Source of the DNA: Fasciola hepatica
Taxonomy: Eukaryota; Platyhelminthes; Trematoda; Plagiorchiida; Fasciolidae
Reading direction: 5' to 3'
Length of the DNA stretch: 64,000 nucleotides
Assembly (NCBI GenBank): GCA_948099385.1
Contig: CANUEZ040000203.1
Coordinates: 1,736,001 to 1,800,000, forward strand
Shown here: positions 1 to 64,000 of the stretch, one piece after another
Position numbering within the stretch: the first letter of the stretch is position 1
Layout: each line of letters opens with the position of its first letter
Notes under the pieces: model-generated
Databases searched by the model: none
What the model was told of the DNA's origin: nothing
Seen by the model: only the letters and a program-made list of their open reading frames with translations
Program-made: the position numbers and the translations under genes

Positions 1-1081
1 ACAGAGAAGTCATCCATCATAGGAGTCGATCGGTGTGCGCGAAGCTGGTTCTTACCATTCAAATTGGAAGCGAGTTTGAGAAGTTTACAATATCATGTAG
101 TGTGGATGTTGAACAATGCGTTGATAGCCATCCCGGATAGACTTGTGTTGTTACGTTTTTCGATTCACAATGGTTCACCGGTTGTTGGAGTGCCCGTGGG
201 GGCTCGGTCGATGTGCACTGCTGATGAGTCGAGTCCCTTAGATGATGAAACAGCTGTACAGTGCTTCCATGGATTTCAATGCTCAGTTGAGCGTTCAAGC
301 TGCATGATCAATCATGTTATACAAATCTAATCTGATCTGATCTAATCTCGTACTACTAATCAATTGCATGCATAGTAAGGAAGCTGTGTAGGTTGTTCAT
401 TTGGGAATGCGTTGGTTGTACTTAGGCCCCTACAGAGAAGTCATCCATCATAGGAGTCGATCGGTGTGCGCGAAGCTGGTTCTTACCATTCAAATTTGAA
501 GCGAGTTTGGGAAGGGTGCTATATCATGTAGTGTAGATGTTGAACAAAGCGTTGATAGCCATCCCGGATAGCCTTGTGTTGTTAGGTTGTTCGATTCACA
601 ATGGTTCACCGGTTGTTGGAGTGCCCGTATGGGCTCGGTCGATGTGCACTGCTGATGAGTCGAGTCCCTTAGATGATGAAACAGCTGTACAGTGCTTCCA
701 TGGATTTCAATGCTCAGTTGAGCGTTCAAGCTGCATGATCAATCATATTATACAAATCTAATCTAATCTAATCTAATCTAATCTCGTACTACTAATCAAT
801 TGCATGCATAGTAAGGAAGCTGTGTAGGTTGTTCATTTGGGAATGCGTTGGTTGTACTTAGGCCCCTACAGAGAAGTCATCCATCATAGGAGTCGATCGG
901 TGTGCGCGAAGCTGGTTCTTACCATTCAAATTTGAAGCGAGTTTGGGAAGGGTGCTATATCATGTAGTGTAGATGTTGAACAATGCGTTGAGAGCCACCC
1001 CGGATAGCCCGGTGTTGTTAAGTTGTTCGATTCACGATGGTTCACCGGTTGTTGGAGTGCCCGTGGGGGCTCGGTCGATGT

Positions 1082-1131
1082 GCACTGCTGATGAGTCGAG
1101 TCCCTTAGAGGATGAAACAGCTGTTCATTGC
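1082..1131 (+). ncRNA. Hammerhead copy with mismatched helix I
   Basis: The 3' strand reads CATTGC instead of CAGTGC and the triplet is GTT. GCACTG can then form only five of six pairs, with a C-T mismatch in the middle. The core CTGATGA and GAAA are intact. The flanking TTTAAGTGCTCAG is also unusual. Activity is probably lowered. Confidence 0.7.
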
Positions 1132-1734
1132 TTCCATGGATTTAAGTGCTCAGTTGAGCGTTCAAGCTGCATGATCAATCATATTTCACAAATCTACTCT
1201 GATCTAATCTCGTACTACCAATCAATTACATGCATAGTAAGGAAGCTGTGTAAGTTGTTCATTTGGGAATGCGTTGGTTGTACTCAGGCCCCTACAGAGA
1301 AGTCATCCATCATAGGAGTCGATCGGTGTGCGCGAAGCTGGTTCTTACCATTCAAATTTGAAGCGAGTTTGGGAAGGGTGCTATATCATGTAGTGTAGAT
1401 GTTGAACAAAGCGTTGATAGCCATCCCGGATAGCCTTGTTTTGTTAAGTTGTTCGATTCACAATGGTTCACCGGTTGTTGGAGTGCCCGTGGTTGTTCGG
1501 TCGAAGTGCACTGCTGATGAGTCGAGTCCCTTAGAGGATGAAACAGCTGTACAGTGCTTCCATGGATTTCAATGCTCACTTGAGCGTTCAAGCTGCATGA
1601 TCAATCATGTTATACAAATGTGATCTAATCTAATCTAATCTCGTACTTCTAATCAATTGCATGCATAGTAAGGAAGCTGTGTAGGTTGTTCATTTGGGAA
1701 TGCGTTGGTTGTACTTAGGCCCCTACAGAGAAGT

Positions 1735-4270
1735 CATCCATCATAGGAGTCGATCTGTGTGCGCGAAGCTGGTTCTTATCATTCAAATTTGGAGCGAGTT
1801 TGGGAAGGGTGCTATATCATGTAGTGTAGATGTTGAACAAAGCGTTGAGAGCCATCCCGGATAGCCTTGTGTTAGTAAATTGTTCGATTCACAATGGTTC
1901 ACCGGTTGTTGGAATGCCCAGGGGGGCTCGGTCGATGTGCACTGCTGATGAGTCGAGTCCCTTAGAGGATGAAACAGCTGTACAGTGCTTCCATGGATTT
2001 CAATGCTCAGTTGAGCGTTCAAGCTGCATGATCAATCATATTATACAAATCTAATCTAATCTGAACTAATCTCGTACTACTAATCAATTGCACGCATATT
2101 AAGGAAGCTGTGTAGGTTGTTCATTTGGGAATGCGTTGGTTGTACTTAGGCCCCTACAGAGAAGTCATCCATCATAGGAGTCGATCGGTGTGCGCGAAGC
2201 TGGTTCTTACCATTCAAATTTGAAGCGAGTTTGGGAAGGGTGCTATATCCTGTAGTGTAGATGTTGAACAAAGCGTTGAGAGCCATCCCGGATAGCCTTG
2301 TTTTGTTAGGTTGTTCGATTCACAATGGTTCACCGGTTGTTGGAGTGCCCGTGGTTGCTCGGTCGATGTGCACTGCTGATGAGTCGAGTCCCTTAGAGGA
2401 TGAAACAGCTGTACAGTGCTTCCATGGATTTCAATGCTCAGTTGAGCGTTCAAGCTGCATGATCAATCATATTATACAAATCTAATCTAATCTGAACTTA
2501 TCTCATACTACTAATCAATTGCATGCATAGTAAGTAAGCTGTGTAGGTTGTTCATTTGGGAATGCGTTGGTTGTACTTAGGCCCCTAAAGAGAAGTCATC
2601 CATCATACGAGTCGATCGGTGTGCGCGTAGCTGATACTTATCATTAAAATTTGAAGCGAGTTTGGGAAGGGTGCTATATCCTGTAGTGTAGATGTTGAAC
2701 AAAGCGTTGAGAGCCATCCCGGATAGCCTTGTTTTGTTAAGTTGTTCGATTCACAATGGTTCACCGGTTGTTGGAGTGCCCGTGTGGGCTCGGTCGATGT
2801 GCACTGCTGATGAGTCGAGTCCCTTAGAGGATGAAACAGCTGTACAGTGCTTCCATGGATTTCAATGCTCAGTTGAGCGTTCAAGCTGCATGATCAATCA
2901 TATTATACAAATCTAATCTAATCTGATCTAATCTCGTAATACTAATCAATTGCATGCATAGTAAGGAAGCGTTGTAGGTTGTTCATTTGGGAATGCGTTG
3001 GTTGTACTTAGGCCCCTAAAGAGAAGTCATCCATCATACGAGTCGATCGGTGTGCGCGTAGCTGATACTTATCATTAAAATTTGAAGCGAGTTTGGGAAG
3101 GGTGCTATATCATGTAGTGTAGGAGTTGAACAAAGCGTTGAGAGCCATCCCGGATAGCCTTGTATTGTTAGGTTGTTCGATTCACAATGGTTCACCGGTT
3201 GTTGGAGTGCCCGTGGGGGCTCGGTCGATGTGCACTGCTGATGAGTCGAGTCCCTTAGAGGATGAAACAGCTGTACAGTGCTTCCATGGATTTCAATGCT
3301 CAGTTGAGCGTTCAAGCTGCATGATCAATCATATTATACAAATCTAATCTAATCTAATCTAATCTCGTACTAGTAATCAATTGCATGCATAGTAGGGAAG
3401 CTGTGTAGGTTGTTCATTTGGGAATGCGTTGGTTGTACTTAGGCCCCTACAGAGAAGTCATCCATCATAGGAGTCGATCTGTGTGCGCGAAGCTGGTTCT
3501 TATCATTCAAATTTGGAGCGAGTTTGGGAACGGTGCTATATCATGTAGTGTAGATGTTGAACAAAGCGTTGAGAGCCATCCCGGATAGCCCGGTGTTGTT
3601 AAGTTGTTCGATTCACAATGGTTCACCGGTTGTTGGAATGCCCGTGGGGGCTCGGTCGATGTGCACTGCTGATGAGTCGAGTCCCTTAGAGGATGAAACA
3701 GCTGTACAGTGCTTCCATGGATTTCAATGCTCAGTTGAGCGTTCAAGCTGCATGATCAATCATATTATACAAATCTAATCTAATCTGAACTAATCTCGTA
3801 ATACTAATCAATTGCATGCATATTAAGGAAGCTGTGTAGGTTGTTCATTTGGGAATGCGTTGGTTGTACTTAGGCCCCTACAGAGAAGTCATCCATCATA
3901 GGAGTCGATCGGTGTGCGCGAAGCTGGTTCTTACCATTCAAATTTGAAGCGAGTTTGGGAAGGGTGCTATATCCTGTAGTGTAGATGTTGAACAAAGCGT
4001 TGAGAGCCATCCCGGATAGCCTTGTTTTGTTAGGTTGTTCGATTCACAATGGTTCACCGGTTGTTGGAGTGCCCGTGGTTGCTCGGTCGATGTGCACTGC
4101 TGATGAGTCGAGTCCCTTAGAGGATGAAACAGCTGTACAGTGCTTCCATGGATTTCAATGCTCAGTTGAGCGTTCAAGCTGCATGATCAATCATATTATA
4201 CAAATCTAATCTAATCTGAACTTATCTCATACTACTAATCAATTGCATGCATAGTAAGTAAGCTGTGTAG
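1735..4270 (+). repeat. Four-monomer duplication, 1724-bp period
   Basis: The monomers around 1.75-2.55 kb recur at 3.47-4.27 kb, shifted by 1724 bp. Both copies share rare variants: CGATCTGTGTGCGCG with TTATCATTC and TTTGGAGCG near 1755-1800 and 3479-3524, and the spacer TCTGAACTTATCTCATAC followed by AGTAAGTAAGC near 2490-2540 and 4214-4264. The two monomers between them (cut at 2844 and 3275) share the different variant GTGCGCGTAGCTGATAC. Confidence 0.85.
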
Positions 4271-7200
4271 GTTGTTCATTTGGGAATGCGTTGGTTGTAC
4301 TTAGGCCCCTACAGAGAAGTCATCCATCATAGGAGTCGATCGGTGTGCGCGAAGCTGGTTCTTACCATTCAAATTTGAAGCGAGTTTGGGAAGGGTGCTA
4401 TATCATGTAGTGTAGATGTTGAACAAAGCGTTGATAGCCATCCCGGATAGCCTTGTGTTGTTAAGTTGTTCGATTCACAATGGTTCACCGGTTGTTGGAG
4501 TGCCCGTGGGGGCTCGGTCGATGTGCACTGCTGATGAGTCGAGTCCCTTAGAGGATGAAACAGCTGTACAGTGCTTCCATGGATTTCAATGCTCAGTTGA
4601 GCGTTCAAGCTGCATGATCAATCATATTATACAAATCTAATCTAATCTAATCTAATCTAATCTCGTACTACTAATCAATTGCATGCATAGTAAGGAAGCT
4701 GTGTAGGTTGTTCATTTGGGAATGCGTCGGTTGTACTTAGGCCCCTACAGAGAAGTCATCCATCATAGGAGTCGATCGGTGTGCGCGAAGCTGGTTCTTA
4801 CCATTCAAATTTGAAGCCAGTTTGGGAAGGGTGCTATATCATGTAGTGTGGATGTTGAACAAAGCGTTGAGTGCCATCCCGGATAGCCTTGTGTTGTTAA
4901 GTTGTTCGATTCACAATGGTTCACCAGTTGTTAGAGTGCCCGTGGGGGCTCGGTCGATGTGCACTGCTGATGAGTCGAGTCCCTTAGAGGATGAAACAGC
5001 TGTACAGTGCTTCCATGGATTTCAATGCTCAGTTGAGCGTTCAAGCTGCATGATCAATCATGTTATACAAATCTGATCTAATCTAATCTAATCTCGTACT
5101 ACTAATCAATTGCATGCATAGTAAGGAAGCTGTGCAGGTTGTTCATTTGGGAATGCGTTGGTTGTACTTAGGCCCCTACAGAGAAGTCATCCATCATAGG
5201 AGTCGATCGGTGTGCGCGGAGCTGGTTCTTACCATTCAAATTTGAAGCCAGTTTGGGAAGGGTGCTATATCATGTAGTGTAGATGTTGAACAATGCGTTG
5301 AGAGCCATCCCGGAAAGCCTTGTGTTGTTAAGTTGTTCGATTCACAATGGTTCACCGGTTGTTGGAGTGCCCGTGTGGGCTCGGTCGATGTGCACTGCTG
5401 ATGAGTCGAGTCCCTTAGATGATGAAACAGCTGTACAGTGCTTCCATGGATTTCAATGCACAGTTCAGCGTTCAAGCTGCATGATCAATCATATTTCACA
5501 AATCTAATATGATTTAATCTCGTACTACCAATCAGTTGCATGCATAGTAAGGAAGCTGTGTAGGTTGTTCATTTGGGAATGCGTTGGTTGTACTTAGGCC
5601 CCTACAGAGAAGTCATCCATCATAGGAGTCGATCGGTGTGCGCGAAGCTGGTTCTTACCATTCAAATTTGAAGCGAGTTTGGGAATTTTGCTATATCATG
5701 TAGTTTGGATGTTGAACAAAGCGTTGATAGCCATCCCGGATAGCCTTGTTTTGTTAAGCTGTTCGATTCACAATGGTTCACCGGTTGTTGGAGTGCCCGT
5801 GGGGACTCGGTCGATGTGCACTGCTGATGAGTCGAGTCCCTTAGATGATGAAACAGCTGTACAGTGCTTCCATGGATTTCAATGCTCAGTTGAGCGTTCA
5901 AGCTGCATGATCAATCATATTTCACAAATCTAATCTAATCTAATCTAATCTAATCTCGTACTACTAATCAATTGCATGCATAGTAAGGAAGCTGTGTAGG
6001 TTGTTCATTTGGGAATGCGTTGGTTGTACATAGGCCCCTACAGAGAAGTCATCCATCATAGGAGTCAATTGGTGTGCGCGAAGCTGGTTCTTACCATTCA
6101 AATTTGAAGCGAGTTTGGGAAGGGTGCTATATCATGTAGTGTAGATGTTGAACAATGCGTTTATAGCCATCCCGGATAGCCTTGTGTTGTTAGGTTGTTC
6201 GATTCACAATGGTTCACCGGTTGTTGGAGTGCCCGTGGGGGCTCGGTCGATGTGCACTGCTGATGAGTCGAGTCCCTTAGAGGATGAAACAGCTGTACAG
6301 TGCTTCCATGGATTTCAATGCTCAGTTGAGCGTTCAAGCTGCATGATCAATCATGTTATACAAATCTGATCTAATCTAATCTAATCTCGTACTACTAATC
6401 AATTGCATGCATAGTAAGGAAGCTGTGTAGGTTGTTCATTTGGGAATGCGTTGGTTGTACTTAGGCCCCTACAGAGAAGTCATCCATCATAGGAGTCGAT
6501 CGGTGTGCGCGAAGCTGGTTCTTACCATTCAAATTTGAAGCCAGTTTGGGAAGGATGCTATATATGATGTAGTGTAGATGTTGAACAAAGCGTTGATAGC
6601 CATCCCGGATAGCCTTGTGTTGTTAAGTTGTTCGATTCACAATGGTTCACCGGTTGTTGGAGTGCCCGTGGGGGCTCGGTCGATGTGCACTGCTGATGAG
6701 TCGAGTCCTTTAGAGGATGAAACAGCTGTACAGTGCTTGCATGGATTTCAATGCTCAGTTGAGCGTTCAAGCTGCATGATCAATCATATTATACAAATCT
6801 AATCTAATCTAATCTAATCTAATCTCGTACTACTAATCAATTGCATGCATAGTAAGGAAGCTGTGTAGGTTGTTCATTTGGGAATGCGTTGGTTGTACTT
6901 AGGCCCCTACAGAGAAGTCATCCATCATAGGAGTGGATCGGTGTGCGCGAAGCTGGTTCTTACCATTCAAATTGGAAGCGAGTTTGAGAAGGTTACAATA
7001 TCATGTAGTGTGGATTTTGAACATTGCGTTGATAGCCATCCCGGATAGACTTGTGTTGTTACGTTTTTCGATTCACAATGGTTCACCGGTTGTTGGAGTG
7101 CCCGTGGGGGCTCGGTCGATGTGCACTGCTGATGAGTCGAGTCCCTTAGATGATGAAACAGCTGTACAGTGCTTCCATGGATTTCAATGCTCAGTTGAGC

Positions 7201-8860
7201 GTTCAAGCTGCATGATCAATCATGTTATACAAATCTAATCTAATCTAATCTAATCTCGTACTACTAATCAATTGCATGCATGGTAAGGAAGCTGTGTAGG
7301 TTGTTCATTTGGGAATGCGTTGGTTGTACTTAGGCCCCTACAGAGAAGTCATCCATCATAGGAGTCGATCGGTGTGCGCGAAGCTGGTTCTTACCATTCA
7401 AATTTAAAGCGAGTTTGGGAAGGGTGCTATATCATGTAGTTTAGATGTTGAACAAAGCGTTGAGAGACATCCCGGATAGCCTTGTGTTGTTAAGTTGTTC
7501 GATTCACAATGGTTCACCGGTTGTTGGAGTGCCCGTGTGTACTCGGTCGATGTGCACTGCTGATGAGTCGAGTCCCTTAGTTGATGAAACAGCTGTACAG
7601 TGCTTCCTTGGATTTCAATGCTGAATTGTGCGTTCAAGCTGCATGATCAATCATGTTATACAAATCTAATCTAATCTAATCTAATCTAATCTAATCTCGT
7701 ACTACTAATCAATTGCATGCATAGTAAGGAATCTGTGTAGGTTGTTCATTTGGGAATGCGTTGGTTGTACTTAGGCCCCTACAGAGAAGTCATCCATCAT
7801 AGGAGTCGATCGGTGTGCGCGAAGCTGGTTCTTACCATTCAAATTTGAAGCGAGTTTGGGAAGGGTGCTATATCATGTAGTGTAGATGTTGAACAAAGCG
7901 TTGATAGCCATCCCGGATAGCCTTGTTTTGTTAAGTTGTTCGATTCACAATGGTTCACCAGTTGTTAGAGTGCCCGTGGTTGCTCGGTCGATGTGCACTG
8001 CTGATGAGTCGAGTCCCTTAGAGGATGAAACAGCTGTACAGTGCTTCCATGGATTTCAATGCTCAGTTGAGCGTTCAAGCTGCATGATCAATCATATTAT
8101 ACAAGTCTAATCTAATCTAATCTAATCTCGTACTACTAATCAATTGCATGCATAGTAAGGAAGCTGTGTAGGTTGTTCATTTGGGAATGCGTTGGTTGTA
8201 CTTAGGCCCCTACAGAGAAGTCATCCATCATAGGAGTCGATCGGTGTGCGCGAAGCTGGTTCTTACCATTCAAATTGGAAGCGAGTTTGGGAAGGGTGCT
8301 ATATCATGTAGTGTAGATGTTGAACAAAGCGTTGATAGCCATCCCGGATAGCCTTGTGTTGTTAGGTTGTTCGATTCACAATGGTTCACCGGTTGTTGGA
8401 GTGCCCGTGGGGGCTCGGTCGATGTGCACTGCTGATGAGTCGAGTCCCTTAGAGGATGAAACAGCTGTTCAGTGCTTCCATGGATTTCAATGCTCAGTTG
8501 AGCGTTCAAGCTGCATGATCAATCTTATTATACAAATCAGATCTAATCTAATCTAATCTAATCTCGTACTACTAATCAATTGCATGCATAGTAAGGAAGC
8601 TGTGAAGGTTGTTCATTTGGGAATGCGTTGGTTGTACTCAGGCCCCTACAGAGAGTCATCCATCATAGGAGTCGATCGGTGTGCGCGAAGCTGGTTCTTA
8701 CCATTTAAATTTAGAGCGAGTTTTGGAAGGGTGCTATATCATGTAGTGTAGATGTTGAACAAAGCGTTGAGAGCCATCCCGGATAGCCTTGTGTTGTTAA
8801 GTTGTTCGATTCACAATGTTTCACAAGATATTGGTGGGTCCGTGGGGGCTCGGTCGATGT

Positions 8861-8910
8861 GCACTGCTGATGAGTCGAGTCCCTTAGAGGATGAAGCAGC
8901 AGTACAGTGC
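8861..8910 (+). ncRNA. Hammerhead copy with altered GAAA and helix III
   Basis: GAAGCAGCAGTACAGTGC replaces GAAACAGCTGTACAGTGC. The last A of GAAA, which pairs with the U of the cleavage triplet, is G (possible G-U wobble). The palindrome CAGCTG becomes CAGCAG, so neither the inner A-U pair nor the self-complementary dimer helix can form fully. It is the only copy with this pair of changes. Confidence 0.7.
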
Positions 8911-9291: not shown

Positions 9292-9341
9292 GCACTGCTG
9301 ATGAGTCGAGTCCCTTAGAGGATGAAACAGCTGTTCAGTGC
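9292..9341 (+). ncRNA. Hammerhead copies with GTT cleavage triplet
   Basis: CAGCTGTTCAGTGC replaces CAGCTGTACAGTGC here and at 8426-8475 and 9728-9777. GTT still obeys the NUH rule for hammerhead cleavage sites, so activity may persist. The three are neighbours or next neighbours, which suggests local spread of one mutation. Confidence 0.7.
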
Positions 9342-41356: not shown

Positions 41357-43952
41357 AAGTTGTTCGATTCACAATGGTTCACCGGTTGTTGGAGTGCCCG
41401 TGGGGGCTCGGTCGATGTGCACTGCTGATGAGTCGAGTCCCTTAGAGGATGAAACAGCTGTACAGTGCTTCCATGGATTTCAATGCTCAGTTGAGCGTTC
41501 AAGCTGCATTATCAATCATATTATACAAATCTAATCTAATCTAATCTAATCTCGTACTACTAATCAATTGCATGCATAGTAAGGAAGCTGTGTAAGTTGT
41601 TCATTTGGGAATGCATTGGTTGTACTTAGGCCCCTACAGAGAAGTCATCCATCATAGGAGTCGATCGGTGTGCGCGAAGCTGGTTCTTACCATTCAAATT
41701 TGAAGCGAGTTTGGGAAGGGTACAATATCATGTAGTGTAGATGTTGAACAAAGCGTTGAGAGCCATCCCGGATAGCCTTGTGTTGTTAAGTTGTTCGATT
41801 CACAATGGTTCACCGGTTGTTGGAGTGCCCGTGGGGGCTCGGTCGATGTGCACTGCTGATGAGTCGAGTCCCTTAGAGGATGAAACAGCTGTACAGTGCT
41901 TCCATGGATTTCAATGCTCAGTTGAGCGTTCAAGCTGCATTATCAATCATATTATACAAATCTAATCTAATCTAATCTAATCTCGTACTACTAATCAATT
42001 GCATGCATAGTAAGGAAGCTGTGTAAGTTGTTCATTTGGGAATGCATTGGTTGTACTAAGGCCCCTACAGAGAAGTCATCCATCATACGAGTCGATCGGT
42101 GTGCGCGAAGCTGGTTCTTACCATTCAAATTTGAAGCGAGTTTGGGAAGGGTGCTATATCATGTAGTGTAGATGTTGAACAAAGCGTTGAGAGCCATATC
42201 GGATAGCCTTGTGTTGTTAAGTTGTTCGATTCACAATGGTTCACCGGTTGTTGGAGTGCCCATGGTTGCTCGGTCGATGTGCACTGCTGATGAGTCGAGT
42301 CCCTTAGAGGATGAAACAGCTGTACAGTGCTTCCATGGATTTCAATGCTCAGTTGAGCGTTCAAGCTGCACGATCAATCATATTATACAAATCTAATCTA
42401 ATCTAATCTAATCTAATCTAATTTCGTACTACTAATCAATTGCATGCATAGTAAGGAAGCTGTGTAGGTTGTTCATTTGGGAATGCGTTGGTTGTACTTA
42501 GGCCCCTACAGAGAAGTCATCCATCATAGGAGTGGATCGGTGTGCGCGAAGCTTGTTCTTACCATTCAAATTTGAAGCGAGTTTGGGAAGGGTGCTATAT
42601 AATGTAGTGTAGATGTTGAACAAAGCGTTGAGAGCCATCCCGGATAGCCTTGTGTTGTTAAGTTGTTCGATTCACAATGGTTCACCGGTTGTTGGAGTGC
42701 CCGTGGGGGCTCGGTCGATGTGCACTGCTGATGAGTCGAGTCCCTTAGAGGATGAAACAGCTGTACAGTGCTTCCATGGATTTCAATGCTCAGTTGAGCG
42801 TTCAAGCTGCATGATCAATCTTATTATACAAATCTAATCTAATCTAATCTAATCTCGTACTACTAATCAATTGCATGCATAGTAAGGAAGCTGTGTAAGT
42901 TGTTCATTTGGGAATGCGTTGGTTGTACTCAGGCCCCTACAGAGAAGTCATCCATCATAGGAGTCGATCGGTGTGCGCGAAGCTGGTTCTTACCATTCAA
43001 ATTTGAAGCGAGTTTGGGAAGGGTGCTATATCATGTAGTGTAGATGTTGAACAAAGCGTTGAGAGCCATCCCGGATAGCCTTGTGTTGTTAAGTTGTTCG
43101 ATTCACAATGGTTCACCGGTTGTTGGAGTGCCCGTGGGGGCTCGGTCGATGTGCACTGCTGATGATTCGAGTCCCTTAGAGGATGAAACAGCTGTACAGT
43201 GCTTCCATGGATTTCAATGCTCAGTTGAGCGTTCAAGCTGCATGATCAATCATATTGTACATATCTAATCTAATCTAATCTAATCTCGAACTACTAATCA
43301 ATTGCATGCATAGTAAGGAAGCTGTGTAGGTTGTTCATTTGGGAATGCGTTGGTTGTACTTAGGCCCCTACAGAGACGTCATCCATCATACGAGTCGATC
43401 GGTGTGCGCGAAGCTTGTACTTACCATTCAAATTTAAAGCGAGTTTGGGAAGGGTACAATATCATGTAGTGTAGATGTTGAACAAAGCTTTGATAGCCAT
43501 CCCGGATAGCCTTGTTTTGTTAAGTTGTTCGATTCACAATGGTTCACCGGTTGTTGGAGTGCCCGTGGGGGCTCGGTCGATGTGCACTGCTGATGATTCG
43601 AGTCCCTTAGAGGATGAAACAGCTGTACAGTGCTTCCATGGATTTCAATGCTCAGTTGAGCGTTCAAGCTGCATGATCAATCATATTGTACAAATCTAAT
43701 CTAATCTAATCGAATCTCGTACTACTAATCAATTGCATGCATAGTAAGGAAGCTGTGTAGGTTGTTCATTTGGGAATGCGTTGGTTGTACTTAGGCCCCT
43801 ACTGAGAAGTCATCCGTCATACGAGTCGATCGGTGTGCGCGAAGCTGGTTCTTACCATTCCAATTTGAAGCGAGTTTGGGAACGGTGCTATATCATGTAG
43901 TGTAGATGTTGAACAAAGCGTTGAGAGCCATCCCGGATAGCCTTGTGTTGTT
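41357..43952 (+). repeat. Six-monomer higher-order unit, copy 1 (2596 bp)
   Basis: Predicted scission follows 41462, 41893, 42324, 42765, 43196 and 43627. The pattern repeats at an exact 2596-bp offset for six consecutive monomers. Markers: GCATTATCAATC (41506, 41937), GAATGCATTGG, ACTAAGGCC, GATTTCGTAC-type spacer ends, GAAGCTTGTTC and GAAGCTTGTACTTACC. The left boundary lies between CTTGTTTTG (41349) and the first shared marker. The copies cut at 43196 and 43627 carry the G-to-T helix II variant. Confidence 0.92.
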
Positions 43953-46700
43953 AAGTTGTTCGATTCACAATGGTTCACCGGTTGTTGGAGTGCCCGTGGG
44001 GGCTCGGTCGATGTGCACTGCTGATGAGTCGAGTCCCTTAGAGGATGAAACAGCTGTACAGTGCTTCCATGGATTTCAATGCTCAGTTGAGCGTTCAAGC
44101 TGCATTATCAATCATATTATACAAATCTAATCTAATCTAATCTAATCTCGTACTACTAATCAATTGCATGCATAGTAAGGAAGCTGTGTAAGTTGTTCAT
44201 TTGGGAATGCATTGGTTGTACTTAGGCCCCTACAGAGAAGTCATCCATCATAGGAGTCGATCGGTGTGCGCGAAGCTGGTTCTTACCATTCAAATTTGAA
44301 GCGAGTTTGGGAAGGGTACAATATCATGTAGTGTAGATGTTGAACAAAGCGTTGAGAGCCATCCCGGATAGCCTTGTGTTGTTAAGTTGTTCGATTCACA
44401 ATGGTTCACCGGTTGTTGGAGTGCCCGTGGGGGCTCGGTCGATGTGCACTGCTGATGAGTCGAGTCCCTTAGAGGATGAAACAGCTGTACAGTGCTTCCA
44501 TGGATTTCAATGCTCAGTTGAGCGTTCAAGCTGCATTATCAATCATATTATACAAATCTAATCTAATCTAATCTAATCTCGTACTACTAATCAATTGCAT
44601 GCATAGTAAGGAAGCTGTGTAAGTTGTTCATTTGGGAATGCATTGGTTGTACTAAGGCCCCTACAGAGAAGTCATCCATCATACGAGTCGATCGGTGTGC
44701 GCGAAGCTGGTTCTTACCATTCAAATTTGAAGCGAGTTTGGGAAGGGTGCTATATCATGTAGTGTAGATGTTGAACAAAGCGTTGAGAGCCATATCGGAT
44801 AGCCTTGTGTTGTTAAGTTGTTCGATTCACAATGGTTCACCGGTTGTTGGAGTGCCCATGGTTGCTCGGTCGATGTGCACTGCTGATGAGTCGAGTCCCT
44901 TAGAGGATGAAACAGCTGTACAGTGCTTCCATGGATTTCAATGCTCAGTTGAGCGTTCAAGCTGCACGATCAATCATATTATACAAATCTAATCTAATCT
45001 AATCTAATCTAATCTAATTTCGTACTACTAATCAATTGCATGCATAGTAAGGAAGCTGTGTAGGTTGTTCATTTGGGAATGCGTTGGTTGTACTTAGGCC
45101 CCTACAGAGAAGTCATCCATCATAGGAGTGGATCGGTGTGCGCGAAGCTTGTTCTTACCATTCAAATTTGAAGCGAGTTTGGGAAGGGTGCTATATCATG
45201 TAGTGTAGATGTTGAACAAAGCGTTGAGAGCCATCCCGGATAGCCTTGTGTTGTTAAGTTGTTCGATTCACAATGGTTCACCGGTTGTTGGAGTGCCCGT
45301 GGGGGCTCGGTCGATGTGCACTGCTGATGAGTCGAGTCCCTTAGAGGATGAAACAGCTGTACAGTGCTTCCATGGATTTCAATGCTCAGTTGAGCGTTCA
45401 AGCTGCATGATCAATCTTATTATACAAATCTAATCTAATCTAATCTAATCTCGTACTACTAATCAATTGCATGCATAGTAAGGAAGCTGTGTAAGTTGTT
45501 CATTTGGGAATGCGTTGGTTGTACTCAGGCCCCTACAGAGAAGTCATCCATCATAGGAGTCGATCGGTGTGCGCGAAGCTGGTTCTTACCATTCAAATTT
45601 GAAGCGAGTTTGGGAAGGGTGCTATATCATGTAGTGTAGATGTTGAACAAAGCGTTGAGAGCCATCCCGGATAGCCTTGTGTTGTTAAGTTGTTCGATTC
45701 ACAATGGTTCACCGGTTGTTGGAGTGCCCGTGGGGGCTCGGTCGATGTGCACTGCTGATGATTCGAGTCCCTTAGAGGATGAAACAGCTGTACAGTGCTT
45801 CCATGGATTTCAATGCTCAGTTGAGCGTTCAAGCTGCATGATCAATCATATTGTACATATCTAATCTAATCTAATCTAATCTCGAACTACTAATCAATTG
45901 CATGCATAGTAAGGAAGCTGTGTAGGTTGTTCATTTGGGAATGCGTTGGTTGTACTTAGGCCCCTACAGAGACGTCATCCATCATACGAGTCGATCGGTG
46001 TGCGCGAAGCTTGTACTTACCATTCAAATTTAAAGCGAGTTTGGGAAGGGTACAATATCATGTAGTGTAGATGTTGAACAAAGCTTTGATAGCCATCCCG
46101 GATAGCCTTGTTTTGTTAAGTTGTTCGATTCACAATGGTTCACCGGTTGTTGGAGTGCCCGTGGGGGCTCGGTCGATGTGCACTGCTGATGATTCGAGTC
46201 CCTTAGAGGATGAAACAGCTGTACAGTGCTTCCATGGATTTCAATGCTCAGTTGAGCGTTCAAGCTGCATGATCAATCATATTGTACAAATCTAATCTAA
46301 TCTAATCGAATCTCGTACTACTAATCAATTGCATGCATAGTAAGGAAGCTGTGTAGGTTGTTCATTTGGGAATGCGTTGGTTGTACTTAGGCCCCTACTG
46401 AGAAGTCATCCGTCATACGAGTCGATCGGTGTGCGCGAAGCTGGTTCTTACCATTCCAATTTGAAGCGAGTTTGGGAACGGTGCTATATCATGTAGTGTA
46501 GATGTTGAACAAAGCGTTGAGAGCCATCCCGGATAGCCTTGTGTTGTTAAGTTGTTCGATTCACAATGGTTCACCGGTTGTTGGAGTGCCCGTGGGGGCT
46601 CGGTCGATGTGCACTGCTGATGAGTCGAGTCCCTTAGAGGATGAAACAGCTGTACAGTGCTTCCATGGATTTCAATGCTCAGTTGAGCGTTCAAGCTGCA
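43953..46700 (+). repeat. Six-monomer higher-order unit, copy 2 (plus one partial unit)
   Basis: Predicted scission follows 44058, 44489, 44920, 45361, 45792, 46223 and 46654. It matches copy 1 at constant offset 2596 with very few differences; one is TATATCATG at about 45193 where copy 1 has TATATAATG at about 42597. The match ends near 46700, where GCATTATC of copy 1 (44101) becomes GCATGATC. No TCTAA tract has changed length, so this is among the youngest duplications in the window. Confidence 0.92.
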
Positions 46701-49594: not shown

Positions 49595-49642
49595 ACAATG
49601 GTTCACCGGTTGTTTGAGTGCCCGTGGGGGCTCGGTCGATGT

Positions 49643-55100: not shown

Positions 55101-58100
55101 TGCGCGAAGCTGGTTCTTACCATTCAAATTTAAAGCGAGTTTGGGAAGGGTGCTATATCATGTATTGTAGATGTTGAACAAAGCGTTGATAGCCATCCCG
55201 GATAGCCTTGTGTTGTTAAGTTGTTCGATTCACAATGGTTCACCGGTTGTTGGAGTGCCCGTGGGGGCTCGGTCGATGTGCACTGCTGATGAGTCGAGTC
55301 CCTTAGAGGATGAAACAGCTGTACAGTGCTTCCATGGATTTCAATGCTCAGTTGAGCGTTCAAGCGGCATGATCAATCATATTGTACAAATCTAATCTAA
55401 TCTAATCTCATATCGTACTACTAATCAATTGCATGCATAGTAAGGAAGCTGTGTAGGTTGTTCATTTGGGAATGTGTTGGTTGTACTTAGGCCCCTTCAG
55501 AGAAGTCATCCATCATACGAGTCGATCGGTGTGCGCGAAGCTGGTTCTTACCATTCAAATTTGAAGCGAGTTTGGGAAGGGTACAATATCATGTAGTGTA
55601 GATGTTGAACAAAGCGTTGATAGCCATCCCGGATAGCCTTGTGTTGTTAAGTTGTTCGATTCACAATGGTTCACCGGTAGTTGGAGTGCCCGTGGGGACT
55701 CGGTCGATGTGCACTGCTGATGAGTCGAGTCCCTTAGAGGATGAAACAGCTGTACAGTGCTTCCATGGATTTCAATGCTCAGTTGAGCGTTCAAGCTGCA
55801 TGATCAATCATATTATACAAATCTAATCTAATCTGAACTTATCTCGTACTACTAATCAATTGCATGCATAGTAAGGAAGCTGTGTAGGTTGTTCATTTGG
55901 GAATGCGTTGGTTGTACTTAGGCCCCTACAGAGAAGTCATCCATCATAGGAGTCGATCGGTGTGCACGAAGCTGGTTCTTACCATTCAAATATAAAGCGA
56001 GTTTGGGAATGGTGCTATATCATGTAGTGTAGATGTTGAACAAAGCGTTGATAGCCATCCCGGATAGCCTTGTGTTGTTAAGTTGTTCGATTCACAATGG
56101 TTCACCGGTTGTTGGAGTGCCCGTGGGGGCTCGGTCGATGTGCACTGCTGATGAGTCGAGTCCCTTAGAGGATGAAACAGCTGTACAGTGCTTCCATGGA
56201 TTTCAATGCTCAGTTGAGCGTTCAAGCTGCATGATCAATCATATTATACAAATCTAATCTAATCTGATCTAATCTCGTACTACTAATCAATTGCATGCAT
56301 AGTAAGGAAGCTGTGTAGGTTGTTCATTTGGGAATGTGTTGGTTGTACTGAGGCCCCTACAGAGAAGTCATCCATCATAGGAGTCGATCGGTGTGCGCGA
56401 AGCTGGTTCTTACCATTCAAATTTGAAGCGAGTTTGGGAAGGGTGCTATATCATGTAGTGTAGATGTTGAACAAAGCGTTGAGAGCCATCCCGGATAGCC
56501 TTGTGTTGTTAAGTTGTTCGATTCACAATGGTTCACCGGTTGTTGGAGTGCCCGTGGGGGCTCGGTCGATGTGCACTGCTGATGATTCGAGTCCCTTAGA
56601 GGATGAAACAGCTGTACAGTGCTTCCCTGGATTTCAATGCTCAGTTGAGCGTTCAAGCTGCATGATCAATCATATTGTACAAATCTAATCTAATGTGATC
56701 TAATCTCGTACTACTAATCAATTGCATGCATAGTAAGGAAGCTGTGTAGGTTGTTCATTTGGGAATGCGTTGGTTGTACTTAGGCCCCTACAGAGAAGTC
56801 ATCCATCATAGGAGTCGATCGGTGTGCGCGAAGCTGGTTCTTACCATTCAAATTTAAAGCGAGTTTGGGAATTTTGCTATATATCATGTAGTGTAGATGT
56901 TGAACAAAGCGTTGAGAGCCATCCCGGATAGCCTTGTGTTGTTAAGTTGTTCGATTCACAATGGTTCACCGGTTGTTGGAGTGCCCATGGTTGCTCGGTC
57001 GATGTGCACTGCTGATGATTCGAGTCCCTTAGAGGATGAAACAGCTGTACAGTGCTTCCATGGATTTCAATGCTCAGTTGAGCGTTCAAGCTGCATGATC
57101 AATCATATTGTACAAATCTAATCTAATCTAATCTAATCTCGTACTACTAATCAATTGCATGCTTAGTAAGGAAGCTGTGTAGGTTGTTCATTTGGGAATG
57201 CGTTGGTTGTACTTAGGCCCCTACAGAGAAGTCATCCATCATAGGAGTCGATCGGTGTGCGCGAAGCTGGTTCTTACCATTCAAATTTGAAGCGAGTTTG
57301 GGAAGGGTGCTATATCATGTAGTGTAGATGTTGAACAAAGCGTTGATAGCCATCCCGGATAGCCTTGTGTTGTTAAGTTGTTCGATTCACAATGGTTCAC
57401 CGGTTGTTGGAGTGCCCGTGTGGGCTCGGTCGATGTGCACTGCTGATGAGTCGAGTCCCTTAGAGGATGAAACAGCTGTACAGTGCTTGCATGGATTTCA
57501 ATGCTCAGTTGAGCGTTCAAGCTGCATGATCAATCATATTATACAAATCTAATCTAATCTGAACTTATCTCGTACTACTAATCAATTGCATGCATAGTAA
57601 GGAAGCTGTGTAGGTTGTTCATTTGGGAATGCGTTGGTTGTACTTAGGCCCCTACAGAGAAGTCATCCATCATAGGAGTCGATCGGTGTGCGCGACGCTG
57701 GTTCTTACCATTCAAATTTGAAGCCAGTTTGGGAAGGGTACAATATCATGTAGTGTAGATGTTGAACAAAGCGTTGATAGCCATCCCGGATAGCCTTGTG
57801 TTGTTAAGTTGTTCGATTCACAATGGTTCACCGGTTGTTGGAGTGCCCGTGGGGACTCGGTCGATGTGCACTGCTGATGATTCGAGTCCCTTAGACGATG
57901 AAACAGCTGTACAGTGCTTCCATGGATTCAATGCTCAGTTGAGCGTTCAAGCTGCATGATCAATCATATTATACAAATCTAATCTAATCTAATCTAATCT
58001 CGTACTACTAATCAATTGCATGCATAGTAAGGAAGCTGTGTAAGTTGTTCATTTGGGAATGTGTTGGTTGTACTGAGGCCCCTACAGAGAAGTCATCCAT

Positions 58101-61100
58101 CATAGGAGTCGATCGGTGTGCGCGAAGCTGGTTCTTACCATTCAAATTTGAAGCGAGTTTGGGAAGGGTACAATATCATGTAGTGTAGATGTTGAACAAA
58201 GCCTTGAGAGCCATCCCGGATAGCCTTGTGTTGTTAAGTTGTTCGATTCACAATGGTTCACCGGTTGTTGGAGTGCCCGTGGGGGCTCGGTCGATGTGCA
58301 CTGCTGATGATTCGAGTCCCTTAGAGGATGAAACAGCTGTATAGTGCTTCCCTGGATTTCAATGCTCAGTTGAGCGTTCAAGCTGCATGATCAATCATAT
58401 TGAACAAATCTAATCTAATCTAATCTAATCTCGTACTACTAATCAATTGCATGCATAGTAAGGAAGCTGTGTAGGTTGTTCATTTGGGAATGCGTTGGTT
58501 GTACTTAGGCCCCCACAGAGAAGTCATCCATCATAGGAGTCGGTCGGTGTGCGCGAAGCTGGTTCTTACCATTCAAATTTAAAGCGAGTTTGGGAAGGGT
58601 GCTATATCATGTATTGTAGATGTTGAACAAAGCGTTGAGAGCCATCCCGGATAGCCTTGTGTTGTTAAGTTGTTCGATTCACAATGGTTCACCGGTTGTT
58701 GGAGTGCCCGTGGGGGCTCGGTCGATGTGCACTGCTGATGAGTCGAGTCCCTTAGAGGATGAAACAGCTGTACAGTGCTTCCATGGATTTCAATGCTCAG
58801 TTGAGCGTTCAAGCTGCATGATCAATCATATTGTACAAATCTAATCTAATCTAATCTAATCTCGTACTACTAATCAATTGCATGCATAGTAAGGAAGCTG
58901 TGTAGGTTGTTCATTTGGGAATGTGTTGGTTGTACTTAGGCCCCTACAGAGACGTCATCCATCATAGGAGTCGATCGGTGTGCGCGAAGCTGGTACTTAC
59001 CATTCAAATTTGAAGCGAGTTTGGGAAGGGTACAATATCATGTAGTGTAGATGTTGAACAAAGCGTTGATAGCCATCCCGGATAGCCTTGTGTTGTTAAG
59101 TTGTTCGATTCACAATGGTTCACCGGTTGTTGGAGTGCCCGTGGGGACTCGGTCGATGTGCACTGCTGATGAGTCGAGTCCCTTAGAGGATGAAACAGCT
59201 GTACAGTGCTTCCATGGATTTCAATGCTCAGTTGAGCGTTCAAGCTGCATGATCAATCATATTATACAAATCTAATCTAATCTAATCTAATCTCGTACTA
59301 CTAATCAATTGCATGCATAGTAAGGAAGCTGTGTAGGTTGTTCATTTGGGAATGCGTTGGTTGCACTTAGGCCCCTACAGAGAAGTCATCCATCATAGGA
59401 GTCGATCGGTGTGCACGAAGCTGGTTCTTACCATTCAAATATAAAGCGAGTTTGGGAACGGTGCTATATCATGTAGTGTAGATGTTGAACAAAGCGTTGA
59501 TAGCCATCCCGGATAGCCTTGTGTTGTTAAGTTGTTCGATTCACAATGGTTCACCGGTTGTTGGAGTGCCCGTGGGGGCTCGGTCGATGTGCACTGCTGA
59601 TGAGTCGAGTCCCTTAGAGGATGAAACAGCTGTACAGTGCTTCCATGGATTTCAATGCTCAGTTGAGCGTTCAAGCTGCATGATCAATCATATTATACAA
59701 ATCTAATCTAATCTGAACTTATCTCGTACTACTAATCAATTGCATGCATAGTAAGGAAGCTGTGTAGGTTGTTCATTTGGGAATGCGTTGGTTGCACTTA
59801 GGCCCCTCCAGAGAAGTCATCCATCATACGAGTCGATCGGTGGGCGCGAAGCTGGTTCTTACCATTCAAATATAAAGCGAGTTTGGGAACGGTGCTATAT
59901 CATGTAGTGTAGATGTTGAACAAAGCGTTGATAGCCATCCCGGATAGCCTTGTGTTGTTAAGTTGTTCGATTCACAATGGTTCACCGGTTGTTGGAGTGC
60001 CCGTGGGGGCTCGGTCGATGTGCACTGCTGATGAGTCGAGTCCCTTAGAGGATGAAACAGCTGTACAGTGCTTCCATGGATTTCAATGCTCAGTTGAGCG
60101 TTCAAGCTGCATGATCAATCATATTATACAAATCTAATCTAATAAAATCTAATCTCGTACTACTAATCAATTGCATGCATAGTAAGGAAGCTGTGTAAGT
60201 TGTTCATTTGGGAATGCGTTGGTTGTACTTAGGCCCCTACAGAGAAGTCATCCATCATAGGAGTCGATCGGTGTGCGCGAAGCTGGTTCTTACCATTCAA
60301 ATTTGAAGCGAGTTTGGGAAGGGTGCTATATCATGTAGTGTAGATGTTGAACAAAGCGTTGAGAGCCATCCCGGATAGCCTTGTGTTGTTAAGTTGTTCG
60401 ATTCACAATGGTTCACCGGTTGTTGGAGTGCCCGTGGGGGCTCGGTCGATGTGCACTGCTGATGATTCGAGTCCCTTAGAGGATGAAACAGCTGTACAGT
60501 GCTTCCCTGGATTTCAATGCTCAGTTGAGCGTTCAAGCTGCATGATCAATCATATTGTACAAATCTAATCTAATGTGATCTAATCTCGTACTACTAATCA
60601 ATTGCATGCATAGTAAGGAAGCTGTGTAGGTTGTTCATTTGGGAATGCGTTGGTTGTACTTAGGCCCCTACAGAGAAGTCATCCATCATAGGAGTCGATC
60701 GGTGTGCGCGAAGCTGGTTCTTACCATTCAAATTTAAAGCGAGTTTGGGAAGGGTGCTATATCATGTAGTGTAGATGTTGAACAATGCGTTGAGAGCCAT
60801 CCCGGATAGCCTTGTGTTGTTAAGTTGTTCCATTCACAATGGTTCACCGGTTGTTGGAGTGCCCGTGGGGTCTCGGTCGATGTGCACTGCTGATGAGTCG
60901 AGTCCCTTAGAGGATGAAACAGCTGTACAGTGCTTGCATGGATTTCAATGCTCAGTTGAGCGTTCAAGCTGCATGATCAATCATATTATACAAATCTAAT
61001 CTAATAAAATCTAATCTCGTACTACTAATCAATTGCATGCATAGTAAGGAAGCTGTGTAAGTTGTTCATTTGGGAATGCGTTGGTTGTACTTAGGCCCCT

Positions 61101-64000
61101 ACAGAGAAGTCATCCATTATAGGAGTCGATCGGTGTGCGCGAAGCTGGTTGTTACCATTCAAATTTGAAGCCAGTTTGGGAAGGGTACAATATCATGTAG
61201 TGTAGATGTTGAACAAAGCGTTGAGAGCCATCCCGGATAGCCTTGTGTTGTTAAGTTGTTCGATTCACAATGGTTCACCGGTTGTTGGAGTGCCCGTGGG
61301 GGCTCGGTCGATGTGCACTGCTGATGAGTCGAGTCCCTTAGAGGATGAAACAGCTGTACAGTGCTTCCATGGATTTCAATGCTCAGTTGAGCGTTCAAGC
61401 TGCATGATCAATCATATTATACAAATCTAATCTAATCTGAACTTATCTCGTACTACTAATCAATTGCATGCATAGTAAGGAAGCTGTGTAAGTTGTTCAT
61501 TTGGGAATGCGTTGGTTGTACTTAGGCCCCTACAGAGAAGTCATCCATCATAGGAGTCGATCGGTGTTCGCGACGCTGGTATTTACCATTCAAATTTGAA
61601 GCCAGTTTGGGAAGGGTACAATATCATGTAGTGTAGATGTTGAACAAAGCCTTGAGAGCCATCCCGGATAGCCTTGTGTTGTTAAGTTGTTCGATTCACA
61701 ATGGTTCACCGGTTGTTGGAGTGCCCATGGTTGATCGGTCGATGTGCACTGCTGATGAGTCGAGTCCCTTAGAGGATGAAACAGCTGTACAGTGCTTCCA
61801 TGGATTTCAATGCTCAGTTGAGCGTTCAAGCTGCATGATCAATCATATTGTACAAATCTAATCTAATCTAATCTAATCTCGTACTACTAATCAATTGCAT
61901 GCATAGTAAGGAAGCTGTGTAGGTTGTTCATTTGGGAATGCGTTGGTTGTACTTAGGCCCCTACAGAGAAATCATCCATCATACGAGCCGATCAGTGTGC
62001 GCGAAGCTGGTTCTTACCATTCAAATTTGAAGCGAGTTTGGGAAGGGTGCTATATCATGTAGTGTAGATGTTGAACAAAGCGTTGAGAGCCATCCCGGAT
62101 AGCCTTGTGTTGTTAAGTTGTTCGATTCACAATGGTTCACCGGTTGTTGGAGTGCCCGTGGGGGCTCGGTCGATGTGCACTGCTGATGAGTCGAGTCCCT
62201 TAGAGGATGAAACAGCTGTACAGTGCTTCCATGGATTTCAATGCTCAGTTGAGCGTTCAAGCTGCATGATCAATCATATTATACAAATCTAATCTAATCT
62301 AATCTAATCTCGTACTACTAATCAATTGCATGCATAGTAAGGAAGCTGTGTAAGTTGTTCATTTGGGAATGTGTTGGTTGTACTGAGGCCCCTACAGAGA
62401 AGTCATCCATCATAGGAGTCGATCGGTGTGCGCGAAGCCGGTTCTTATCATTCAAATTTGAAGCGAGTTTGGGAAGGGTACAATATCATGTAGTGTAGAT
62501 GTTGAACAAAGCGTTGATAGCCATCCCGGATAGCCTTGTGTTGTTAAGTTGTTCGATTCACAATGGTTCACCGGTTGTTGGAGTGCCCGTGGGGACTCGG
62601 TCGATGTGCACTGCTGATGAGTCGAGTCCCTTAGAGGATGAAACAGCTGTACAGTGCTTCCATGGATTTCAATGCTCAGTTGAGCGTTCAAGCTGCATGA
62701 TCAATCAAATTATACAAATCTAATCTAATCTGAACTTATCTCGTACTACTAATCAATTGCATGCATAGTAAGGAAGCTGTGTAGGTTGTTCATTTGGGAA
62801 TGCGTTGGTTGCACTTAGGCCCCTACAGAGAAGTCATCCATCATAGGAGTCGATCGGTGTGCACGAAGCTGGTTCTTACCATTCAAATATAAAGCGAGTT
62901 TGGGAACGGTGCTATATCATGTAGTGTAGATGTTGAACAAAGCGTTGATAGCCATCCCGGATAGCCTTGTGTTGTTAAGTTGTTCGATTCACAATGGTTC
63001 ACCGGTTGTTGGAGTGCCCGTGGGGGCTCGGTCGATGTGCACTGCTGATGAGTCGAGTCCCTTAGAGGATGAAACAGCTGTACAGTGCTTCCATGGATTT
63101 CAATGCTCAGTTGAGCGTTCAAGCTGCATGATCAATCATATTATACAAATCTAATCTAATAAAATCTAATCTCGTACTACTAATCAATTGCATGCATAGT
63201 AAGGAAGCTGTGTAAGTTGTTCATTTGGGAATGCGTTGGTTGTACTTAGGCCCCTACAGAGAAGTCATCCATCATAGGAGTCGATCGGTGTGCGCGAAGC
63301 TGGTTCTTACCATTCAAATTTAAAGCGAGTTTGGGAAGGGTGCTATATCATGTAGTGTAGATGTTGAACAATGCGTTGAGAGCCATCCCGGATAGCCTTG
63401 TGTTGTTAAGTTGTTCGATTCACAATGGTTCACCGGTTGTTGGAGTGCCCATGGTTGCTCGGTCGATGTGCACTGCTGATGATTCGAGTCCCTTAGAGGA
63501 TGAAACAGCTGTACAGTGCTTCCATGGATTTCAATGCTCAGTTGAGCGTTCAAGCTGCATGATCAATCATATTGTACAAATCTAATCTAATCTAATCTAA
63601 TCTCGTACTACTAATCAATTGCATGCATAGTAAGGAAGCTGTGTAGGTTGTTCATTTGGGAATGCGTTGGTTGTACTTAGGCCCCTACAGAGAAGTCATC
63701 CATCATACGAGTCGATCGGTGTGCGCGAAGCTGGTTCTTACCATTCAAATTTGAAGCGAGTTTGGGAAGGGTACAATATCATGTAGTGTAGATGTTGAAC
63801 AAAGCGTTGAGAGCCATCCCGGATAGCCTTGTGTTGTTAAGTTGTTCCATTCACAATGGTTCACCGGTTGTTGGAGTGCCCGTGGGGGCTCGGTCGATGT
63901 GCACTGCTGATGAGTCGAGTCCCTTAGAGGATGAAACAGCTGTACAGTGCTTCCATGGATTTCAATGCTCAGTTGAGCGTTCAAGCTGCATGATCAATCA
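54600..64000 (+). repeat. Eight-monomer periodicity (~3449 bp), including monomers 128-148
   Basis: Predicted scission from 55.1 kb on follows 55323, 55754, 56185, 56616, 57049, 57480, 57911, 58341, 58772, 59203, 59634, 60065, 60496, 60927, 61358, 61789, 62220, 62651, 63082, 63513 and 63944. The series starting at 54.69 kb recurs at 58.14 kb (offset 3449). The type with GGGGACTCGG recurs at 55.6, 59.1 and 62.6 kb, followed each time by the type with CAAATATAAAGCG (55.99, 59.44, 62.89 kb). One additional CAAATATAAAGCG monomer at 59.87 kb is an insertion that lengthens the next offset to 3880. Confidence 0.87.

What the first reader, a model, noticed from the sequence alone, without database searches (positions are those of the whole stretch)
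1..64000. Satellite array in which every unit encodes a hammerhead ribozyme
Seen: all 148 units contain CTGATGA and GAAA in the right order, flanked by GCACTG and CAGTGC, with a GTA, GTT or rarely altered cut site between. Known: hammerhead satellites have been described in newts, schistosomes and Dolichopoda cave crickets, and related circular RNAs (retrozymes) in many animals. Inference: the array is transcribed and self-processed into 431-nt RNAs. No annotation based on proteins would reveal this.
Basis: partly seen in the sequence, partly recalled or inferred. Interest (0 to 1): 0.92.

Follow-up and report, generated by a model that had tools for sequence, protein, structure and literature searches.

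The report
Fluke satellite with damaged hammerhead ribozymes
A liver-fluke relative carries a very long stretch of repeated DNA that descends from a mobile element joining a tRNA-like head to a self-cutting RNA; here the self-cutting part is still recognisable in the copies but altered in a way that should weaken it.

Summary
The array is real: one 431-bp satellite (147.7 copies), on a 3.05-Mb contig that is satellite in all 36 stretches sampled (240 kb). Every unit keeps a type I hammerhead core, but none reaches Rfam's cut-off (listed hits 19.3-27 bits against 34). The main visible defect is five extra bases before stem II (GAGTC duplicated), in 148 of 148 units. COX1 places the genome in or near the fasciolid flukes.

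Relatives in the same genome: a 400-bp form (C) with a tRNA-Val-like head 10 nt before a hammerhead without the duplication (28.8-33.4 bits), and dispersed partial copies (36.5-40 bits). A 423-bp satellite form (B) has lost G5 and G12 in 337 of 337 units. Three of eight bounded insertions tested have 10-14-bp target duplications; one of these holds 2.08 tandem units. So the family moved by reverse transcription, at least once as a multimer, and arrays grew to megabases with or without a usable ribozyme.

Closest known: schistosome Sm-alpha (tRNA-Gln SINE with hammerhead) and metazoan retrozymes; this is a new member of that kind.

The parts
1..64000 (+). Satellite array, form A, 431-bp unit, 147.7 copies; runs past both ends of the window
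   Evidence: tandem repeats; flanks on both sides are the same satellite, L012 and L022
2370..2419 (+). Hammerhead motif of one unit with the commonest sequence; like it 147 others, about 431 bp apart
   Evidence: 24.5 bits, RF00163, below the cut-off of 34; motif variants; letters checked
2376..2382 (+). Catalytic core, first strand, CTGATGA (C3 to A9)
   Evidence: 148 of 148 units
2381..2390 (+). GAGTC GAGTC: five extra bases at the foot of stem II, absent from forms B and C
   Evidence: Alignment of A, B and C; extra bases in 148 of 148 window units, counting one-base variants
2402..2405 (+). Catalytic core, second strand, GAAA (G12 to A15.1)
   Evidence: 145 of 148 units; 3 have GAAG
2405..2412 (+). 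ACAGCTGT, 8-base palindrome of stem and loop III, could pair between two units
   Evidence: 144 of 148 units; dimer energies
2413..2414 (+). Predicted cleavage point, after the A of GTA and before CAGTGC
   Evidence: GTA 143, GTT 4, AAA 1 of 148; by homology, not tested
2286..2359 (+). Decayed tRNA-like head, aligned with the tRNA-Val-like head of form C
   Evidence: Alignment; no tRNA reported in the window by Rfam at its cut-off nor by ARAGORN in 1-5000
41646..46406 (+). Recent duplication of a block of six units (units 97-101 and 103-107 are 4 identical pairs and 1 nearly identical pair)

Best explanation
The window is an old, megabase-scale satellite made of a degenerate form (A) of a tRNA-headed hammerhead retroelement of a fasciolid fluke. 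Shown: the family has a 400-bp form (C) with a tRNA-Val-like head 10 nt before a type I hammerhead that lacks the five extra bases; it exists as tandem arrays, as partial dispersed copies, and as a bounded insertion of two tandem units, and some insertions have target duplications. Inferred: the head drives Pol III transcription, the hammerhead cuts multimeric RNA into units, units may be closed into circles by a host ligase, and a LINE or Penelope-type reverse transcriptase copies multimeric or circular RNA into new sites. Shown: arrays reach megabases and include a form (B) whose ribozyme is dead. Inferred: this last growth was by recombination at the DNA level. In form A the head is decayed and stem II is damaged, while core, stem I and the palindromic stem III are kept; I expect weak cleavage by single units, perhaps more as double hammerheads, and no strong 431-nt RNA in vivo.
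For: Five extra bases in 148 of 148 units and low scores. Forms A, B, C 80-88% identical. In C (L047, 25 units with a hammerhead core) Rfam finds a tRNA at or above its cut-off in 22 places and ARAGORN 19 tRNA-Val, with a hammerhead 10 nt on. Genome search: 38 hammerheads listed, 37 over the cut-off, none on C203, but only 74 of 288,504 candidates were scored; of the eight read, 7 match C at 78-95% identity. Target duplications: L006 12 bp with 1 mismatch and L007 10 bp (each 0 of 400 controls as good); L051, holding 2.08 units, 14 bp with 1 mismatch (0 of 500 controls). 36 of 36 sampled stretches of the contig are satellite, 20 of them B. B: 0 of 337 units have CTGATGA or GAAA.
Against: No RNA evidence at all. 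Form C itself scores 28.8 (5 units) or 33.4 bits (1 unit), just under Rfam's cut-off. Of eight bounded insertions tested, five show no convincing target duplication. The duplication of L051 partly overlaps bases that could belong to the element, and its controls do not allow for that. L009 has G at the cut site. Insertions do not end at the cleavage point, so they do not show that cleaved units are the template. Circular RNAs of A, B and C are 60-63% paired, below the 70% quoted for metazoan retrozymes (PMC4918200).
Confidence: 0.65

Rival explanations
1. One reading: the 431-bp array is transcribed and self-processed into 431-nt RNAs, perhaps mainly as double hammerheads that pair through the 8-base palindrome, and selection keeps the core.
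For: Core invariant in 148 of 148 units; hammerhead diversity 0.0086 against 0.0255 outside, rank 15 of 431 as a 50-base stretch, Mann-Whitney p = 1.6e-4. In the dead form B the same region has no special protection (rank 143 of 404 against 14 of 404 for A; site resampling p = 0.023). Palindrome in 144 of 148; as a dimer the hammerhead fold is -24.7 kcal/mol against 2 x -11.5 for two single MFE folds. Natural hammerheads with two-pair stem II or a U10.1-U11.1 mismatch are reported (PMC3088659, passages); axolotl motifs with weak stems act as dimers (PMC7229834).
Against: No transcript data. Five extra bases in stem II. Another dimer fold is lower, -32.1. In 350-nt contexts stem I has mean probability 0.01 in the 25 units tested. 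The A-to-B diversity ratio ranks only 53 of 404. No compensatory change in the window. Site tests treat linked sites as independent, and units of one array are homogenised together.
Confidence: 0.22
2. Tandem units arise only at the DNA level. The two-unit insertion L051 is an excised and reinserted array fragment or a copy of read-through RNA from an existing array, and no circular or self-cut RNA is involved.
For: Insertions do not begin or end at the cleavage point. Forms B and A grew to large arrays although B has a dead and A a damaged ribozyme. A six-unit block duplication in the window is a DNA-level event.
Against: Two L-loci and L051 have target duplications typical of target-primed insertion. 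Form C RNA is far more stable than its shuffles, z -5.3. The hammerhead is kept in C and in most dispersed copies read.
Confidence: 0.3
3. The motif is a chance match repeated 148 times because the units are copies of one sequence.
For: The 148 units are one event in descent; all score below Rfam's cut-off.
Against: Chance is 4 in 20,000 for a relaxed motif. Homologous dispersed copies score 36.5-40 bits, over the cut-off.
Confidence: 0.01

Closest known systems
Sm-alpha and Sj-alpha SINE-like elements, and hammerhead-bearing W-elements, of Schistosoma
   Same: Flukes; type I hammerhead; tRNA-derived SINE (tRNA-Gln in S. mansoni: PMC2770079, passages; a full tRNA in the schistosome repeats: PMC4918200 section 10); tandem and dispersed copies; some W-element hammerheads with very short stem III cleave in vitro (PMC8490949, passages)
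   Different: Here the head is tRNA-Val-like (ARAGORN), and the window's form has a damaged stem II and decayed head. Sequence descent from Sm-alpha was not tested, as I had no Sm-alpha sequence.
Metazoan (non-LTR) retrozymes
   Same: Type I hammerhead in tandem units of 150-450 bp with less than 50% G+C, short insertions and arrays, target duplications, palindromic or weak stem III that may work as a dimer (PMC7229834 sections 12 parts 1-2 of 3 and 17)
   Different: Circular RNA not shown here; pairing 60-63% instead of above 70%; arrays far longer than the 62-mers quoted for Acropora; a tRNA head, which the authors report only for schistosome repeats
pDo500 satellite of Dolichopoda cave crickets
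   Same: Long-lived satellite with one hammerhead per unit, more conserved than the rest of the unit (PMC2837043, abstract and Results)
   Different: pDo500 shows compensatory changes; none in this window. Here relatives are mobile and tRNA-headed, and one sister satellite has a dead ribozyme.
SINE-derived satellites of squamate reptiles
   Same: Satellite grown from SINE sequence (PMC10702118, abstract and outline only)
   Different: The abstract mentions no ribozyme and says that those repeats have not amplified like typical satellites; here one contig alone is 3.05 Mb.

Membership tests
Hammerhead ribozyme, type I | Core C3-U4-G5-A6-N7-G8-A9 and G12-A13-A14 in the right order | tested here: met
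   148 of 148 units; A15.1 changed in 3 of 148
Hammerhead ribozyme, type I | Stems I, II and III around the core, cut site NUH | tested here: inconclusive
   Stem I and III present, NUH in 147 of 148; stem II weak, with five extra bases
Hammerhead ribozyme, type I | Score at or above Rfam's gathering score for RF00163 | tested here: not met
   Window: 0 hits. Form C: 28.8-33.4 bits, also not met. Dispersed copies: met, 36.5-40 bits
Hammerhead ribozyme, type I | Self-cleavage | not testable with these tools
   No experiment or RNA data
Metazoan retrozyme | Tandem units of 150-450 bp, below 50% G+C, one type I hammerhead each | tested here: met
   431 bp, 44%; form C 400 bp, 47%; hammerhead with the reservations above
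Metazoan retrozyme | Unit RNA highly self-paired (above 70% in PMC4918200) | tested here: not met
   A 62.6%, z -0.1; B 63.4%, z -0.6; C 60.0%, but z -5.3
Metazoan retrozyme | Mobile, with target duplications | tested here: inconclusive
   For the family, not the window: 3 of 8 bounded insertions (L006, L007, L051)
Metazoan retrozyme | Circular RNA | not testable with these tools
   No RNA data
Sm-alpha-type SINE (tRNA head plus hammerhead) | tRNA-derived head before the hammerhead | tested here: met
   Form C: 22 Rfam tRNAs and 19 ARAGORN tRNA-Val in L047. In the window's form A it is decayed and not recognised
Sm-alpha-type SINE (tRNA head plus hammerhead) | Common descent with Sm-alpha | not tested
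   No Sm-alpha sequence at hand; the head here is Val-like, there Gln

The most novel reading that the evidence does not exclude
Fasciolid flukes carry a tRNA-hammerhead retrozyme, possibly still active, whose circular or multimeric RNA is reverse-transcribed into short tandem insertions. Copying tends to start at two points, about 60 and 93-98 nt after the ribozyme's cut, and can start from both strands of the target, which gives head-to-head inverted insertions. The same element seeded megabase satellites in which the ribozyme was later damaged (A) or lost (B): a complete series from mobile ribozyme to chromosome-scale satellite within one genome.
Probability: 0.35. Interest if true: 0.75.

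Novelty: new member of a known kind. Interest (0 to 1): 0.5.

Why it matters
How hammerhead satellites arise, and whether the ribozyme matters for their spread, is unsettled. This genome holds better-preserved, damaged and dead versions of one element side by side, so the part played by cleavage can be tested by comparison. The dead form fills 20 of the 36 stretches sampled on this contig, which argues that array growth does not need cleavage. It also shows that megabases of such DNA escape RNA annotation at standard cut-offs as well as protein annotation.

Tried and rejected
Chance motif: rejected by shuffles and by relatives over the cut-off. GTTCGATTC as a Pol III B box: dropped, because alignment with form C shows that the tRNA's B box lies further on and is decayed in A. 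Pseudoknot between loop II and the stem I side: five or more pairs also in 51% of shuffles, so no evidence. Coding: 19 ORFs of 60 aa or more in the first 4 kb on both strands, recurring with the unit, not pursued. Minus-strand hammerhead: none found. Viral and prokaryote collections: one pattern without a viral hit, one prokaryote contig and two viral contigs that share a 19-21-base stretch with the unit and no long similarity beyond it, no match in plasmids or phages. Growth by runs of identical neighbours: adjacent units differ by 0.0378 on average, all pairs by 0.0389, apart from one six-unit block. Form C units inside the A array of C203 (about 1.36 kb, L053) do not begin or end at the ends of the dispersed copies, so I do not count them as an insertion. 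A count of all copies in the genome was not possible: the tool scored 74 of 288,504 candidates, 39 of 2,942 and 22 of 2,139.
Full report
What is in the window. Positions 1-64000 are one head-to-tail array of a 431-bp unit, 147.7 copies, 95% matches, 44% G+C. CTGATGA occurs 148 times on + and never on -, at spacings of 421-446. Of 147 complete units 143 are distinct.

The hammerhead. The reading is GCACUG-CUGAUGA-stem II-GAAA-C-AGCU-GUA/CAGUGC, type I. Among 148 units the core strand is intact in 148, GAAA in 145, NUH in 147 (GTA 143, GTT 4; AAA 1), stem I 5' side in 147 and 3' side in 140, palindrome ACAGCTGT in 144; 140 pass a strict rule. A relaxed descriptor hits 4 of 20,000 dinucleotide shuffles, 1 of 20,000 with a 6-bp stem I. 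Rfam gives 0 hits at its cut-off. At E <= 10, 76 of 148 units are listed with 19.3-27 bits, all RF00163, all on +.

Why it scores low. Aligned with its relatives the window's form has five extra bases, GAGTC GAGTC, at the foot of stem II, in 148 of 148 units if one-base variants are counted. Stem II then begins with G.U in 130 units (2 of them with a broken third pair) or U.U in 18, followed by U-A and C-G. The hammerhead fold of the commonest 50-mer is -4.4 kcal/mol against an MFE of -11.5; in 350-nt contexts stem I forms with mean probability 0.01 in the 25 units tested. As a dimer through the palindrome the hammerhead fold is -24.7, but another dimer fold reaches -32.1. A yardstick, the Rfam consensus with a filler loop, gives -8.3 for the hammerhead fold and -13.3 for its MFE, so an MFE that is not the hammerhead is no proof of inactivity. 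Perreault et al. report two-pair stems II and a tolerated U10.1-U11.1 mismatch (PMC3088659, passages). Activity is weakened in prediction, not excluded.

Conservation. In the window the hammerhead's mean diversity is 0.0086 against 0.0255 outside; as a 50-base stretch it ranks 15 of 431, the ten lowest stretches all overlap it, and Mann-Whitney gives p = 1.6e-4. The 10 core sites are invariant (P = 2.8e-4 if sites were independent). No compensatory change is seen in the 19 distinct window variants.

The genome. The window is C203:1736001-1800000 of an assembly of 1.50 Gb in 656 contigs. COX1, read with the flatworm code, is 94% identical to Fasciola gigantica (484 of 513); the next named relatives stand at 83-84% (Fasciolopsis buskii, Tracheophilus; query read with code 5). 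So the host is a fasciolid or close to it; I do not name the species. All 36 stretches sampled along the 3.05-Mb contig (240 kb) are at least 97% satellite: 12 A, 3 mixed, 20 B, 1 C, in both orientations. Form A is also on C194, C196, C197 and C208 (where 39 of 2,942 candidates were scored).

Three forms. A (431 bp), B (423 bp) and C (400 bp) are 80-88% identical to each other. B has lost both catalytic guanines: of 337 units, from 15 stretches, 0 have CTGATGA or GAAA. In aligned coordinates the hammerhead region ranks 14 of 404 in A and 143 of 404 in B; site resampling of the ratio gives p = 0.023, but the ratio ranks only 53 of 404. With 47 A units from outside the window the rank is 10 of 431; in C (24 units, very uniform) it is 93 of 400, p = 0.13. 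So protection where the core is alive is suggested, not proved. Form C in L047 (25 hammerhead cores) has a tRNA at or above Rfam's cut-off in 22 places, and ARAGORN tRNA-Val; 10 nt on follows the hammerhead, 28.8 bits in 5 units and 33.4 bits in 1 unit of the first 2.5 kb, again just under the cut-off. C RNA is far more stable than its shuffles as a circle (z -5.3), unlike A (z -0.1) and B (z -0.6); all three are 60-63% paired.

Mobility. The genome search lists 38 hammerheads, 37 over the cut-off, none on C203, with 74 of 288,504 candidates scored. Eight loci were read: 7 match form C at 78-95% identity, and L005 is a different element. In the alignment of ten hammerheads two stem I pairs show changes on both sides, both in L005 alone. 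Target duplications: L006 (12 bp, 1 mismatch) and L007 (10 bp), none convincing in the 5 other loci tested. Form C also lies in tandem on C163, C24 and C193 (L049, L050, L052) and, by listed matches only, on C252 and C30. On C107 a bounded insertion (L051) holds 2.08 units plus an inverted 58-nt piece; its flanks share 14 bp with 1 mismatch (0 of 500 controls as good), partly overlapping bases that could belong to the element. BLAST 3' ends, counted from the cleavage point, cluster at 59-63 (L004, L006, L008, L011, L051) and 97-98 (L006, L007, L008, L049, L051), the latter perhaps 93 because the last bases are ambiguous; four fall elsewhere (L009 88, L010 84 and 53, second arm of L004 148). 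Copies do not end at the cleavage point.

Reading. Shown: one family with better-preserved, damaged and dead hammerheads; a tRNA head; target duplications in 3 of 8 bounded insertions; two tandem units inside one insertion; megabase arrays. Inferred: Pol III transcription, cleavage, circles, and the reverse transcriptase used. The dead form B fills 20 of 36 stretches, so array growth does not need cleavage. The window's form A is best read as a degenerate satellite stage with a conserved core that may still work weakly.

Relation to the known. Schistosome Sm-alpha is a tRNA-Gln-derived SINE with a hammerhead (PMC2770079, passages; PMC4918200 section 10), and hammerheads of some schistosome W-elements cleave in vitro (PMC8490949, passages). 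Metazoan retrozymes are tandem units of 150-450 bp with type I hammerheads and circular RNA (PMC7229834, sections read). The fluke element works like both in its anatomy; descent from Sm-alpha was not tested. That Penelope-type elements might mobilise such units is those authors' proposal. The giant squid genome paper reports both a tRNA-Val excess and 235 type I hammerheads (PMC6962438, passages), a possible parallel that I did not test.

Noticed in passing
L004 1445-1845, L006 1410-1909, L008 1448-1864, L010 1086-1592, L051 663-1556: Head-to-head inverted pairs of the element, tails outward; in L006 and L051 target duplications lie outside the pair, so the pair seems to have inserted as one. 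In L006, L008 and L051 one arm ends near 60 and the other near 97-98.
   Followed up: partly
L005 1350-1700: A second, unrelated element: GGTTCAAATCC (tRNA B box-like) shortly before a type I hammerhead of 39.5 bits with other stem I letters; ARAGORN finds no tRNA there.
   Followed up: no
C203 at about 1.4695-1.471 Mb, L053: About 1.36 kb of form C units inside the A array, in the same orientation as their A neighbours; ends do not match those of the dispersed copies.
   Followed up: partly
C203, about 1.35, 1.69, 1.72-1.73, 2.15-2.30 and 2.75-2.90 Mb: The satellite changes form (A/B) or orientation several times along the contig; at 1.35 and 1.69 Mb form and orientation change together.
   Followed up: no
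window 41646-46406: Tandem duplication of a six-unit block, the only such block found with three or more units at 0.3% difference or less.
   Followed up: yes
window, about 320 in each consensus unit: AATCT microsatellite of 5 to 8 copies per unit, a main source of the unit-length differences in steps of 5.
   Followed up: no
G000 contigs C429, C468, C471 and others: COX1 occurs in 33 matches, several per contig at about 14-15 kb spacing, which looks like concatenated mitochondrial genomes left in the assembly; one short match with stops on C46 may be a nuclear copy.
   Followed up: no
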